Source: Mycobacterium sp. Z3061 (GTDB taxonomy: Bacteria; Actinomycetota; Actinomycetes; Mycobacteriales; Mycobacteriaceae). Taken from it: DNA of 64,000 nt. Numbering within the stretch: position 1 is the stretch's first letter; each line of letters starts with the position of its first letter. Shown here one piece after another: positions 7,720 to 16,938 of this stretch. A program made the position numbers and the translations under genes. The notes beneath the pieces were generated by a model that had not been told where the DNA came from, searched no databases, and saw only the letters and a program-made list of their open reading frames with translations. The stretch covers positions 992,001 through 1,056,000 of the forward strand of contig NZ_CP134062.1 in the NCBI RefSeq assembly GCF_031583025.1. The letters run 5' to 3'.

Positions 7720-10635
7720 TCAGCGCTCGGCGGACAGCGCCGGCGACCTGTCGGTGACCGGCTCCTCACGGGGAAGCCGCGGGCTGCGGGCGGGACGCGA
7801 CCGCACCCGGATGGGCCACCAGAACCAGCGGCCCAGTAACGCCGCGATGGAGGGCGTCATGAATGCCCGCACGATCAGCGTGTCGAACAGCAGACCCAGG
7901 CCGATGGTGGTGCCCACCTGCCCGATCATCCGGGCGTCGCCGATGATCATGGACGCCATCGTGAAGGCGAAGACCAGGCCGGCGTTGGTCACGACCTTGC
8001 CGGTCCCACCCATCGACCGGATGATGCCGGTATTGAGGCCGGCATGTATCTCCTGTTTGAAGCGGGAGACCAGCAGCAGGTTATAGTCCGAGCCCACGGC
8101 CAGCAGCACGATCACGGACATCGCGAGCACCAGCCAGTGCAACGGGACGCCGAATATGTGCTGCCACACCAACACTGACAGGCCGAACGAGGCGCCCAGG
8201 GACAGCGCGACGGTTCCGACGATCACTGCCGCCGCCACGAACGCGCGGGTCAGGATCAGCATGATGATGAAGATCAGGCAGAGCGACGAAATGCCCGCGA
8301 TCACGAGGTCCCACTTGGCGCCTTCGGAGATGTCCTTGACGATGGCGCCCATTCCGGAGACGTAGATCTTGGAGTCTTCCAGGGGAGTGCCTTTGAGTGA
8401 TTCCTCGGCTGCCGTCTGGATCTTGCCGATGCTTGCGATGCCCTCGGCCGAGGCGGGATCACCCCGGTGCAGGATGATGAACCGCGCCGCGTGGCCGTCG
8501 GCGGACAGGAAATTGTTCATGGCGCGCTTGAAGTCGGCGTTCTTGAACACTTCCGGCGGCAGGTAGAACGAGTCGTCGTTCTTCGCGGCGTCGAACGCAT
8601 GGCCCATCGCCGTCGCGTTGTCGCTCATCTCGTCCATCTGCTGGAAGATCCCGGACATGGTGCTGTGCATGCTCAGCATCATCGTTCGCATGCTGACCAT
8701 GGTTTCGATCATGGGCGGGAAGGTTGCGATCATCTGCGGCATCAGCACGTCGAGCTGTTTGATGTCGCCCACCAGGACGTTCAGCTTCTCGTCGATCTCG
8801 TCGATGCCGTCGAGGGCGTCGAAGACCGAACGCAACGACCAGCAGGCCGGGATGTCGTAGCAGTGCTTCTCCCAATAGAAATACGAGCGGATCGGCCGCA
8901 GGAAGTCGTCGAAATTGGCGAGTTTGTCGCGTAGGTCGTTGGTGATCTGCTGCATCTCTTCGGTGTCGCCGACCATCTTGTGGGTGACTCCCACCAGCTG
9001 CGTCATCAGGCCGTACATCCGCTGCATCAGGGCGATCGTCTTGGACATCTCGTCGGCCTGCTTGAGCATGTCGTCCATGCGGTCACGCTGGTACTTCATG
9101 GTCTGCATCTGACCGGCGCTCTGCATGCTCATCTGGAACGGTATCGACGTGTGGTCCATCGTGGTGCCGTCCGGCCTGGTGATGGCCTGGACGCGGGATA
9201 TCCCCGGCACCCGGAAGATCCCCTTGGCCAGTCTGTCCAGGATCAGGAAATCAGCCGGATTCCGCATGTCGTGATCCGACTCGATCATCAGAATCTCCGG
9301 CTTCATCCGAGCCTGGGAGAAGTGCCGATCGGCGACGAGGAAGCCCTGGTTGGCCGGGATGAAGCTGGGCAGGTAGGCGCGGTCGTCGTAGCTGGGCTTG
9401 TAACCGGGCAGCGTGATCAGGCCGATCAGGGCGATCACACACGTGACGGCGAGAATCGGCAACGGCCAGCGCACCACCGCGGTACCGACCCGGCGCCAGC
9501 CCCGCACCGAAAGCACCCGCTTGGGGTCGAACACGCCGAACCGGCTGCCGACGACGAGCACCGCCGGGCCCAGCGTCAGCGCGACCAGAACCGCGACCAG
9601 CATGCCGACCGCGCAGGGAATGCCCAGCGTCTGGAAGTAGGGCATGCGGGCGAAGCCGAGACATAACGTCGCACCCGCGATCGTCAGACCGGATCCCAAA
9701 ATGACGTGCGCCGTACCGTGATACATCGTGTAGAACGCGGATTCCCGGTCCTCCCCGGCCTGTCGTGCTTCCTGATATCGGCCGATGATGAAGATGCCGT
9801 AGTCGGTTCCGGCCGCGATCGCGAGCGACGTGAGCAGGCTGACGGCGAAGGTGGACAGCCCGATCAGCTGGTTGCTCCCGAGGATGGCGACGGCGCCGCG
9901 CGCCGCGCTCAGTTCGATCCCGACGGTGACCAGCAGCAGGATCACCGTCAGCGGAGATCGGTAGATGAACATCAGCATGAACAGGATCACCAGGACCGTG
10001 GTGATCGTGATCTTGGCCATCGATCTGTCGCCGCTGTGCTGCAGGTCCGCGGCCAGTGCCGAGGCCCCGGTGACGTACGCCTTGAGACCGGGCGGAGGCG
10101 GGGTGGCGTCGACGATTTTGCGCACGGCGTCCACGGATTCGTTGGCCAGCGGTTCACCCTGGTTGCCGGCGAGGTTCAGCTGGACGGTGACGGCTTTGCC
10201 GTCGTTGCTCTGCGCGCCCGCCGCGGTGAGGGGATCGCCCCAGAAGTCCTGGATGCTCAGTACGTGCTTGTCCGCGCGCAACTTGCGGATCAGACCGTCG
10301 TAGTACCGGTGCGCCGCATCGCCGAGGGGCTGCTCGCTCTCCAGCACGATCATCGCGACGCTGTCGGTCTCCCCTTCCTTGAAGACGCGGCTGATCCGCT
10401 TCAGTGCGACGAACGACGGGGCATCCTTGGGGCTCAGCGAAACCGAGCGTTGTTGCCCGACGATCTCCAGTGACGGAACGAGCACGCTGAGCAGCACGAC
10501 GACCACCACCCAGAAGAGGATGATCGGCACCGCGAAGGCATGGATCATCCGCGGGATGAACGGGCGGTGCGGACGGGGTTCGACGACGGGGCTGTCCGGG
10601 CGGTCGTCGGCTCGGTAGTCCAAGGTGGTACTCAC
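7720..10635 (-). CDS. mmpL4: RND-family lipid/siderophore transporter MmpL4
   Basis: A protein of 971 residues (MmpL4 of M. tuberculosis is close to this), with two RND repeats: six membrane helices in each half and large periplasmic loops. The first half has AAGTDYGIFIIGRY and the second VGSDYNLLLVSRF; each contains the Asp-Tyr pair that relays protons in MmpL proteins. The long periplasmic insertion around residues 450-700 is helical and Met-rich, with the hairpin Cys in HCYDIPACWSLRS. MmpL4 with MmpS4 exports mycobactin and carboxymycobactin. It starts at the GTG at 10635, which forms GTGA with the mmpS stop; the pairing and gene order match Rv0450c-Rv0451c. Confidence 0.93.
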   Translation of the reverse strand: MSTTLDYRADDRPDSPVVEPRPHRPFIPRMIHAFAVPIILFWVVVVVLLSVLVPSLEIVGQQRSVSLSPKDAPSFVALKRISRVFKEGETDSVAMIVLESEQPLGDAAHRYYDGLIRKLRADKHVLSIQDFWGDPLTAAGAQSNDGKAVTVQLNLAGNQGEPLANESVDAVRKIVDATPPPPGLKAYVTGASALAADLQHSGDRSMAKITITTVLVILFMLMFIYRSPLTVILLLVTVGIELSAARGAVAILGSNQLIGLSTFAVSLLTSLAIAAGTDYGIFIIGRYQEARQAGEDRESAFYTMYHGTAHVILGSGLTIAGATLCLGFARMPYFQTLGIPCAVGMLVAVLVALTLGPAVLVVGSRFGVFDPKRVLSVRGWRRVGTAVVRWPLPILAVTCVIALIGLITLPGYKPSYDDRAYLPSFIPANQGFLVADRHFSQARMKPEILMIESDHDMRNPADFLILDRLAKGIFRVPGISRVQAITRPDGTTMDHTSIPFQMSMQSAGQMQTMKYQRDRMDDMLKQADEMSKTIALMQRMYGLMTQLVGVTHKMVGDTEEMQQITNDLRDKLANFDDFLRPIRSYFYWEKHCYDIPACWSLRSVFDALDGIDEIDEKLNVLVGDIKQLDVLMPQMIATFPPMIETMVSMRTMMLSMHSTMSGIFQQMDEMSDNATAMGHAFDAAKNDDSFYLPPEVFKNADFKRAMNNFLSADGHAARFIILHRGDPASAEGIASIGKIQTAAEESLKGTPLEDSKIYVSGMGAIVKDISEGAKWDLVIAGISSLCLIFIIMLILTRAFVAAAVIVGTVALSLGASFGLSVLVWQHIFGVPLHWLVLAMSVIVLLAVGSDYNLLLVSRFKQEIHAGLNTGIIRSMGGTGKVVTNAGLVFAFTMASMIIGDARMIGQVGTTIGLGLLFDTLIVRAFMTPSIAALLGRWFWWPIRVRSRPARSPRLPREEPVTDRSPALSAER

Positions 10636-11054
10636 GCGGACTTGACCAGACAGAAGGTAAAGGCGTTGACCTCGTTGGAGACTCGCTCCGATTTGACTAC
10701 GTCGTCGATCAGGATGCGGCAACCGATGCTGTCGCTGTCACCCTGGGCCATCAGGTTGCCCACCATTGCCGCCTTGTTCGTGCTGATGTGCAGCGACCAG
10801 GGCAGCCGCGCGTTGTCCACGCGCTGCGGGTCGGCGTTGACGTCGAAATAACTGATGTCGGCCACCGTGCCTGCCGGGCCGAACACCTCGTAGGTGATTC
10901 GCTTGGGGTTGAACGGCTCTGGGTTCTTCAGGTTGCTGTCCGCGTACGATGCCCGCTTCTCCGAGCCGAAATAACCGTGGACCCGGTTCACGATGAACGC
11001 GCCGGTGACCAACACCGCCACAATGACGAGTGGGATCCACACGCGCGACAGCAC
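10632..11054 (-). CDS. mmpS4: MmpS4 accessory protein for MmpL4
   Basis: A protein of 140 residues, exactly the length of M. tuberculosis MmpS4. It has an N-terminal membrane anchor (WIPLVIVAVLVTGAFIVNRV) and a periplasmic beta-sandwich domain whose text is nearly that of MmpS4: FNPKRITYEVFGPAGTVADI, SYFDVNADPQRVD, LPWSLHISTN and the end FTFCLVKSA. It assembles with MmpL4 to export siderophores. GTG start at 11054, coupled to mmpL4. The upstream region, shared with the divergent TetR gene, carries an IdeR-like iron box (separate entry), so repression by iron is likely. Confidence 0.95.
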   Translation of the reverse strand: MLSRVWIPLVIVAVLVTGAFIVNRVHGYFGSEKRASYADSNLKNPEPFNPKRITYEVFGPAGTVADISYFDVNADPQRVDNARLPWSLHISTNKAAMVGNLMAQGDSDSIGCRILIDDVVKSERVSNEVNAFTFCLVKSA

Positions 11055-11177
11055 CTTGAAAATCTCAGGTCCCTTTCACCGTTGGGCATCGCTCAGGTCG
11101 GACGATACCCGCCCTAGGAGACGCTTGCGTCTTCATTCGACCGGCCGCACTGCGCAGATCGGGCAGCGCGCCGCGAA

Positions 11178-16481: not shown

Positions 16482-16488
16482 GGTGCCC

Positions 16489-16938
16489 TTACGCCCAGTT
16501 CCAGACCGACATGTCGCCGGCCGGGTACCCGTTGCACGCGTCGGTGCCCTTGGCGACGACGCCCTTGTTGTTGAAGAAGATCTTCATGTGGTTGACCCAG
16601 GCGAAGGTGAGCGGATCGCCGTTGTAGAAGTTCTCGGAATAGTCCCTGCGCTCGGCCGGCGACAGCGAGAAGAACCAGTGCGCCTTGTTGATGGTGGCTT
16701 CCTGGAGGTTCGCGTGGTTGTTGAAATCGATCATGTACCGCTCGTAGTAGACCGGGCTGGTATCCCGGACGGCGGCCAGATACTGCTCTGCGTCGCAGGT
16801 GGTCGCGATCATCCGGCGCGGGATCGGGAAATCCTCGGTGGAGTCAGCTTTCGCTGCCTGGGGAAAGATCACCGCGGCGATCGCGAGAGCGAGGAAAACA
16901 GCGCCTGCACGCAGGCCGATACTCAGCCGAGACATCAT
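16489..16938 (-). CDS. Secreted DUF5078-type protein required for siderophore secretion (Rv0455c homologue)
   Basis: A protein of 149 residues with a signal peptide (LRAGAVFLALAIAAVIFPQAAKA) and a mature domain of about 117 residues holding two Cys (TTCDAEQ, DACNGYP) that can form a disulfide. The text FPIPRRMIATTCDAEQYLAA, FNNHANLQEATINKAHWFF and GDMSVWNWA agrees with my memory of Rv0455c, which is needed for mycobactin and carboxymycobactin secretion in M. tuberculosis. That fits the neighbouring mmpS/mmpL pairs. Two adjacent ATGs (16938 and 16935) are possible starts; no ribosome-binding site precedes them, but a palindrome does. Confidence 0.92.
   Translation of the reverse strand: MMSRLSIGLRAGAVFLALAIAAVIFPQAAKADSTEDFPIPRRMIATTCDAEQYLAAVRDTSPVYYERYMIDFNNHANLQEATINKAHWFFSLSPAERRDYSENFYNGDPLTFAWVNHMKIFFNNKGVVAKGTDACNGYPAGDMSVWNWA

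What the first reader, a model, noticed from the sequence alone, without database searches (positions are those of the whole stretch)
7720..16938. Expanded siderophore-export island: two mmpS-mmpL pairs, a TetR gene and the secreted Rv0455c homologue
The window shows two complete, translationally coupled mmpS-mmpL pairs lying back to back around a single TetR gene, with the Rv0455c homologue 1.3 kb further on. MmpS4/L4 and Rv0455c are each known to be needed for siderophore secretion in M. tuberculosis, but in that genome a PPE gene lies where the second pair sits here. The second MmpS has a longer cytoplasmic leader and a Gly/Ser linker, and the second MmpL a longer tail, suggesting divergence after duplication. 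The locus could export two substrates or tune export to two signals.
Basis: partly seen in the sequence, partly recalled or inferred. Interest (0 to 1): 0.72.

Follow-up and report, generated by a model that had tools for sequence, protein, structure and literature searches.

The report
Siderophore-export locus with a second exporter
Next to the genes that many mycobacteria use to release iron-scavenging molecules, this genome carries a second, anciently distinct pair of membrane-export genes that is tied to a neighbouring regulator gene; the arrangement is common among slow-growing mycobacteria, and the second pair is not a recent copy of the first.

Summary
Pair A (7720-11054) is an MmpS4/MmpL4 orthologue and 16489-16938 the Rv0455c homologue, so the siderophore-export core is supported. 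The second pair (12079-15599) is not a duplicate of it: its MmpL falls in a separate clade with MmpL2 and uncharacterised paralogues, and grouping it with MmpL4 or MmpL5 is rejected (AU p about 6e-6 and 6e-10). The layout is not special: of 85 non-redundant comparable loci, 59 hold a pair between Rv0455c and tetR, of types B (as here) or C, and 34 of these also hold mmpL4. TetR is present in all 59 but in 6 of 18 loci with mmpL4 alone. An operator-like element covers the tetR start; a second element and an IdeR-like box occur almost only where mmpS4-mmpL4 is present. Most likely one TetR controls both units, iron adds control to mmpS4-mmpL4, and the second pair exports another, unidentified amphiphile. 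B-type genomes without a slot MmpL4 leave open that it exports siderophore too. Known family, modest interest.

The parts
7720..10635 (-). mmpL A, MmpL4 orthologue
   Evidence: 78% identical to M. tuberculosis MmpL4 by blastp, best PDB hit 9syt 1682 bits; MmpL4 clade 100/100
10632..11054 (-). mmpS A, MmpS4 orthologue, GTGA overlap with mmpL A
   Evidence: PF05423 227 bits; junction read
11178..11196 (.). IdeR-like iron box, 13 of 19 to a recalled consensus, half-site TTAGGTAAGGCTAA
   Evidence: not significant alone (about 2.6 such matches expected in the window), but conserved where mmpS4-mmpL4 is present
11253..11273 (.). element M2 (TAACGCATATCACGTGCGTAA, 3 mismatches), proposed TetR operator on the mmpS4 side
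11292..11312 (.). element M1 (CAAATCAC-N5-GTGCGTTA, exact), proposed TetR operator over the tetR start
11266..11991 (+). TetR-family regulator (PF00440, PF17929); probable start 11305
12061..12079 (.). TTAGGTTAG half-site and TTAG-N5-CTAA palindrome just before mmpS B; 48 bp kept by sister lineages between it and the ATG are missing here
12079..12642 (+). mmpS B, B-type, long cytoplasmic leader and Gly/Ser linker (conserved ATG at 12085)
   Evidence: PF05423 127 bits; orthologues
12639..15599 (+). mmpL B, B-type MmpL in the clade with MmpL2, ATGA overlap with mmpS B
15607..15930 (-). small Cys/His-rich protein (107 aa from the ATG at 15930), conserved neighbour of unknown role
   Evidence: matched at many of the loci; its 104-aa main part has no Pfam or NCBIfam match
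16239..16481 (-). small ORF (80 aa) with an apparent signal peptide (by eye)
   Evidence: read from sequence
16489..16938 (-). Rv0455c homologue, exported DUF5078 protein
   Evidence: PF16877 181 bits; 290 of 297 genus genomes have a match

Best explanation
The window holds the ordinary mmpS4-mmpL4 / Rv0455c siderophore-export locus plus a tetR-mmpS-mmpL module in the slot between them. The TetR protein probably binds M1 over its own start, repressing the tetR-mmpS_B-mmpL_B unit, and M2 in the divergent mmpS4 promoter. A ligand of TetR would then release both pumps, while IdeR adds iron repression to mmpS4-mmpL4 alone. The second pump is an ancient, separate MmpS/MmpL type that most likely exports a different amphiphilic compound. 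Shown: gene content, phylogeny, co-occurrence of tetR with the slot pair, distribution of the elements. Inferred: that TetR binds M1 and M2, that IdeR acts here, and that the substrates differ.
For: Phylogeny: LB with its B-type relatives, uncharacterised paralogues, C-type and MmpL2, 100/99 support; joining with the MmpL4 or the MmpL5 clade rejected, p-AU 6.2e-6 and 5.8e-10. TetR present in 59 of 59 loci with a slot pair, but in 6 of 18 loci with mmpL4 alone. M1 (3 mismatches or fewer) in 72 of 75 TetR loci, against 2 of 225 random stretches of the same loci. In 13 genomes all 12 exact M1 sites lie beside a tetR gene, 2 of them at relocated tetR-S_B-L_B modules (places held). M2 (4 or fewer) in 41 of 44 loci with mmpL4 versus 2 of 31 without (random 1 of 225); both exceptions, L045 and L097, have an mmpS4-like gene beyond tetR and a fetched stretch that ends before mmpL4 is complete. 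IdeR-like box (12 of 19 or more) in 34 of 44 tetR upstream regions with mmpL4, 0 of 32 without, 7 of 228 random stretches; 12 of 14 loci with mmpL4 alone and no tetR still have such a match upstream of mmpL4. IdeR is reported to bind promoters of siderophore export genes in M. tuberculosis (PMC9132128, passages). In M. abscessus a divergent TetR represses mmpS5-mmpL5 through a palindrome (PMC5895659, passages).
Against: M1 and M2 were defined on these same loci, which share ancestry, so their counts are descriptive; only the genome-wide check is partly independent. That check also found 8 matches at 2 mismatches away from tetR, and its reversed-pattern control gave 7 matches at up to 2 mismatches against 25 for the pattern. 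In M. tuberculosis a CRP site is shared by mmpS4 and Rv0452 (PMC4117774, passages) and Rv0678 binds the mmpS4-mmpL4 promoter (PMC6463170, PMC5895659, passages), so another protein could bind M2. The IdeR-like box matches 13 of 19 and is not among the sites of a stricter genome scan of G000; a few of the 34 counted boxes have another shape (for example L152, L159, L161). A TTAGGTTAG half-site also lies before mmpS B in the gordonae-asiaticum group, so iron control of the second pair here is not excluded. No expression, binding or substrate data.
Confidence: 0.55

Rival explanations
1. The second pair is a second siderophore exporter working with Rv0455c, redundant with or replacing MmpS4/MmpL4, as MmpS5/MmpL5 is in M. 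tuberculosis.
For: It lies beside Rv0455c in 37 of 85 loci as B-type (16 AB, 20 B, 1 BC). Four genomes with only the B pair at the locus (G224, G046, G283, G247) have no slot-A-like MmpL4 elsewhere: their best LA match is 65%, and those of G224 and G283 put on the tree fall with the glycopeptidolipid-type pairs, the MmpL5 clade or LB's own clade (G046 and G247 were not put on it). A TTAGGTTAG half-site precedes mmpS B in the gordonae-asiaticum group. PMC9042941 (passages) reports Rv0455c genes always beside mmpS4-mmpL4 or mmpS5-mmpL5.
Against: LB is outside the MmpL4 and MmpL5 clades. In 11 of 18 genomes with a B-type gene it lies away from Rv0455c (9 at 150 kb or more, 2 on another contig), in at least seven different neighbourhoods with no siderophore genes recognised by eye. 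No IdeR-like box at 12 of 19 or more in 22 of 22 B-only tetR upstream regions. At least G283 keeps an MmpL5-clade gene (L209) that could serve.
Confidence: 0.27
2. Recent local duplication of mmpS4-mmpL4 followed by divergence.
For: Same family, adjacency, shared regulator.
Against: 58% identity, different clades, AU rejection even for the two window proteins alone (p 0.00015); B-type orthologues in 18 of 24 genomes searched.
Confidence: 0.02
3. The second pair is chiefly a drug or toxic-compound efflux pump whose inducer is the TetR ligand.
For: A TetR-controlled MmpS5/MmpL5 pump of this kind exists in M. abscessus (PMC5895659, passages); the tetR-pump module occurs as a unit at other places in G195 and G230.
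Against: No direct evidence; LB is highly conserved (89-93% to ten slow-grower loci outside the gordonae complex), more like a pump with a dedicated endogenous substrate.
Confidence: 0.16

Closest known systems
MmpS4/MmpL4 with Rv0455c, M. tuberculosis siderophore export
   Same: Pair A and the Rv0455c homologue are orthologues; same order and orientation as I recall the M. tuberculosis map; IdeR-like box upstream of mmpS4
   Different: A second, distantly related pair occupies the slot between tetR and Rv0455c
MAB_4384 TetR with divergent MmpS5/MmpL5, M. abscessus (PMC5895659, passages)
   Same: TetR beside an MmpS/MmpL pair with a conserved inverted-repeat-like element between the units
   Different: Here tetR is co-directional with one pair and divergent from another; the MmpL types differ
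MmpS2/MmpL2 (Rv0506/Rv0507)
   Same: Named relative of LB in the same clade (100/99); L202 taken as MmpL2 by synteny with SerB1-like and HemA-like genes read by eye (the M. tuberculosis order is recalled)
   Different: Only 62% identical to LB, other locus; its substrate is described as unknown (PMC6463170, passage)
Glycopeptidolipid MmpL4a/MmpL4b
   Same: Same MmpL family; tandem pairs beside MbtH genes in G283 and G224, taken as this type from that layout
   Different: They belong to the MmpL4 clade with LA, not with LB

Membership tests
MmpL4 (pair A) | clusters with M. tuberculosis MmpL4 | tested here: met
   100/100 clade
MmpL4 (pair A) | adjacent MmpS and Rv0455c homologue | tested here: met
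MmpL4 (pair A) | exports mycobactins | not testable with these tools
   needs an assay
MmpL4 or MmpL5 (pair B) | clusters with MmpL4 or MmpL5 | tested here: not met
   AU p 6.2e-6 (with the MmpL4 clade) and 5.8e-10 (with the MmpL5 clade); groups were named after earlier trees had been seen
MmpS/MmpL transporter (pair B) | MMPL and Mycobact_memb domains, overlapping genes | tested here: met
Glycopeptidolipid transporter (pair B) | clusters with MmpL4a/b; MbtH or NRPS neighbours | tested here: not met
   for the clade; no MbtH gene inside the window; NRPS genes not searched
IdeR regulon (pair B) | conserved iron box upstream | tested here: inconclusive
   12 of 41 B-type upstream regions at 12 of 19 or more versus 11 of 171 random; 8 of the 12 are the GGTTAG-type sites of the gordonae-asiaticum group
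TetR-repressed divergent pump | regulator binds a palindrome in the intergenic region | not testable with these tools
   candidate elements only

The most novel reading that the evidence does not exclude
tetR-mmpS_B-mmpL_B is a regulator-plus-exporter module that moves around slow-grower genomes and can take over from MmpS4/MmpL4 as the partner of Rv0455c, so that mycobacteria swap their siderophore exporters; the slot beside Rv0455c is an exchange site with two ancient alternative types, B and C.
Probability: 0.22. Interest if true: 0.6.

Novelty: new member of a known kind. Interest (0 to 1): 0.34.

Why it matters
M. tuberculosis needs MmpS4 or MmpS5, and Rv0455c, to release siderophores and grow in low iron (PMC3561183, PMC9042941; passages). 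Slow growers with other MmpS/MmpL types beside Rv0455c, some without a slot-A MmpL4, are a natural experiment on which exporter Rv0455c needs. The candidate elements also give a concrete regulatory hypothesis for the Rv0452 family of TetR, for whose ligand I saw no report in the listings and passages looked at.

Tried and rejected
Recent duplication: rejected by trees and AU tests. Glycopeptidolipid assignment for LB: rejected. Recent horizontal spread as the reason for the high LB conservation: not settled. Fourfold-site identity of LB to twelve loci outside the gordonae complex is 56-69%, somewhat above echA2 (59-68%, ten loci) and the peptidase gene (52-64%, ten loci) and above LA (45-58%, eight loci), so constraint is my reading but exchange may contribute, for example in L013. 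A biosynthetic partner at relocated B loci: none recognised among the neighbours printed for 10 of 11 relocated loci (the eleventh, L194, shares its context with L192), by eye, no profile search. CRP as binder of M1: its spacing does not fit the CRP consensus as I recall it; for M2 not excluded. An M. tuberculosis genome for naming MmpL1 and MmpL9: not found, so their place relative to LB is unknown. The TTAG-N5-CTAA palindrome before mmpS B as the general TetR operator: dropped, it is in 12 of 39 distinct tetR-mmpS gaps with a B-type MmpS and in 0 of 28 with the other kind. C-type as one clean clade: not shown, MmpL2 falls among its members with weak support. In the alignment the coordinates for L149 and L150 were wrong; for those two I rely. 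My note says at least eight neighbourhoods for the relocated cassettes; recounting with shared genes merged gives at least seven.
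Full report
Setting. The window lies at 992001-1056000 of a 6.79-Mb single-contig genome. The closest named record is Mycobacterium gordonae CTRI 14-8773 (L009, 99% over the Rv0455c homologue), so I take it as the M. gordonae complex. The order peptidase gene, echA2-like gene, Rv0455c homologue, tetR, mmpS4, mmpL4 and an Rv0449c-like gene matches M. tuberculosis as I recall it; names such as Rv0449c, Rv0452 for the tetR gene, and echA2 are recalled, not from a call.

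Observation. All parts are real. Corrections: mmpL A starts at GTG 10635; TetR probably starts at GTG 11305; mmpS B probably starts at ATG 12085.

Pair A is MmpS4/MmpL4. Its MmpL scores 1682 bits against M. tuberculosis MmpL4 (9syt), against about 1340 for the M. smegmatis 'MmpL4' chain 9b43 and for MmpL5. I take 9b43 as MSMEG_3496 from PMC11524445 (passages).

Pair B is a different type. LB scores nearly alike against these three (1314 for 9b43, 1300 for 9syt, 1268 for MmpL5). In trees of 145, 65 and 33 MmpL proteins it forms an orthologous group, B, next to uncharacterised paralogues. With a second type, C, and MmpL2 these form one clade (100/99). C is not cleanly one clade: MmpL2 falls among its members with weak support (85/94 and 80/89). 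The MmpL4 clade includes the glycopeptidolipid-type pairs of G224 and G283; MmpL5 and MSMEG_3496 form a third clade. AU tests reject B with the MmpL4 clade (p 6.2e-6), B with the MmpL5 clade (5.8e-10), and LA with LB (0.00015). The groups were chosen after seeing earlier trees.

The slot. Around Rv0455c I gathered 80 named loci (the best 80 of 348) and 80 unnamed ones (picked by me from the matches that one search listed; its list was cut off, and some are second Rv0455c copies of one genome). With the window these gave 161 rows, 149 with distinct Rv0455c DNA. Keeping echA2 upstream and at least 9.5 kb downstream leaves 85 loci: B 20, A 18, A+C 18, A+B 16, none 8, C 4, B+C 1. So 59 of 85 have a pair in the slot and 34 have that pair plus mmpL4. 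The sample leans to slow growers close to the window. M. uberis keeps only decayed fragments in the slot (L082).

TetR goes with the slot pair: 59 of 59 loci with it, 6 of 18 with mmpL4 alone, 2 of 8 with neither. In G195 and G230, which have mmpL4 alone and no tetR at the locus, the tetR-S_B-L_B module lies elsewhere with an exact M1 element, and the old G195 locus keeps M1 remnants at 1 and 2 mismatches.

The B gene moves. In 24 genomes chosen by me to cover the states, 18 have one B-type MmpL (87% or more to LB; one of them, G045, is a shorter frame). It is in the slot in 7 and elsewhere in 11. The 11 relocated cassettes lie in at least seven neighbourhoods, one beside a transposase-like gene (L196) and one near a recombinase-like fragment (L187), both judged by eye. 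Six genomes show none (G105, G026, G222, G237, G064, G029).

Regulation. The IdeR-like box (12 of 19 or more) occurs in 34 of 44 tetR upstream regions with mmpL4, 0 of 32 without, and 7 of 228 random stretches. In the 900 bases upstream of the MmpL genes: A-type 47 of 70, B-type 12 of 41, C-type 0 of 27, MmpL5 clade 5 of 29, random 11 of 171. Of 14 loci with mmpL4 alone and no tetR, 12 have such a match, so the box goes with mmpS4, not with tetR. M1 is at 72 of 75 tetR genes (random 2 of 225); M2 at 41 of 44 with mmpL4 and 2 of 31 without (random 1 of 225). Both elements were derived from these loci. The partly independent check is: of 25 matches at up to 2 mismatches in 13 genomes, all 12 exact ones and 3 others lie beside tetR, 2 are the G195 remnants, and 8 (all at 2 mismatches) lie elsewhere; the reversed pattern gave 7. 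G031 and G277, in whose fetched loci I found no tetR, have no exact site; neither has G064, whose tetR site has 1 mismatch. M. tuberculosis studies report CRP binding shared by mmpS4 and Rv0452 (PMC4117774) and a motif for Rv0452 that missed that paper's cut-off (E 4.9e-13; the logo was not visible to me; PMC4482099). I read passages only of these.

Conservation. LB keeps 89-93% identity to ten slow-grower loci outside the gordonae complex; in the six of them that hold LA, LA keeps 78-83%. In the two most distant loci, L101 and L102, LB keeps 86 and 82% and LA 71 and 73%. LB is also somewhat higher at fourfold sites (56-69% against 45-58% for LA), so stronger constraint is likely but gene exchange may add to it.

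Window-specific change. In the window and L009 the 48 bp that sister lineages keep between the TTAG-N5-CTAA palindrome and the mmpS B ATG are missing. That stretch looks by eye like promoter or ribosome-binding sequence, so expression of pair B may differ in this strain.

Function. Both MmpL keep the two Asp-Tyr pairs of the transmembrane relay (AAGTDY, AVGSDY; read, roles recalled), so both look like working pumps. Siderophore export by pair A is inferred from orthology. For pair B it is open: adjacency to Rv0455c and the lack of a slot-A-like MmpL4 in four B-only genomes speak for it; phylogeny, wandering location and lack of an iron box at most B loci speak against. One lead not followed: an M. 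avium paratuberculosis MmpL whose best M. tuberculosis match is Rv0507 (MmpL2) is induced by zinc starvation (PMC4298942, passages); whether it is of the B, C or MmpL2 type was not tested. I favour another substrate than siderophore.

Literature. Ten searches of the held open-access library listed no paper whose title or abstract start describes two pairs around this tetR or the B-type cassette. I read passages of eleven papers and none in full; most subscription papers and the supplementary figures are not held (Fig. S2 of PMC9042941 may show some of these loci).

Noticed in passing
12061-12085: 48 bp missing before mmpS B in the window and L009 relative to L010, L012, L036, L149 and L150; the lost stretch resembles promoter and ribosome-binding sequence.
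   Followed up: partly
15607-15930: 107-aa Cys/His-rich protein, matched at many Rv0455c loci, no family match.
   Followed up: no
16239-16481: 80-aa ORF with an apparent signal peptide next to the Rv0455c homologue.
   Followed up: no
L172 (own genome 2873311-2879851): Two MmpL genes of the MmpL5 clade with an MbtH gene between them, glycopeptidolipid-like in layout.
   Followed up: partly
L055: Both a C-type and a B-type pair in tandem beside Rv0455c, each with a tetR match, the one between them short.
   Followed up: no
L198, L199: C-type MmpL genes away from Rv0455c in G230 (two copies) and G261, all three with equal match scores, suggesting recent movement.
   Followed up: no
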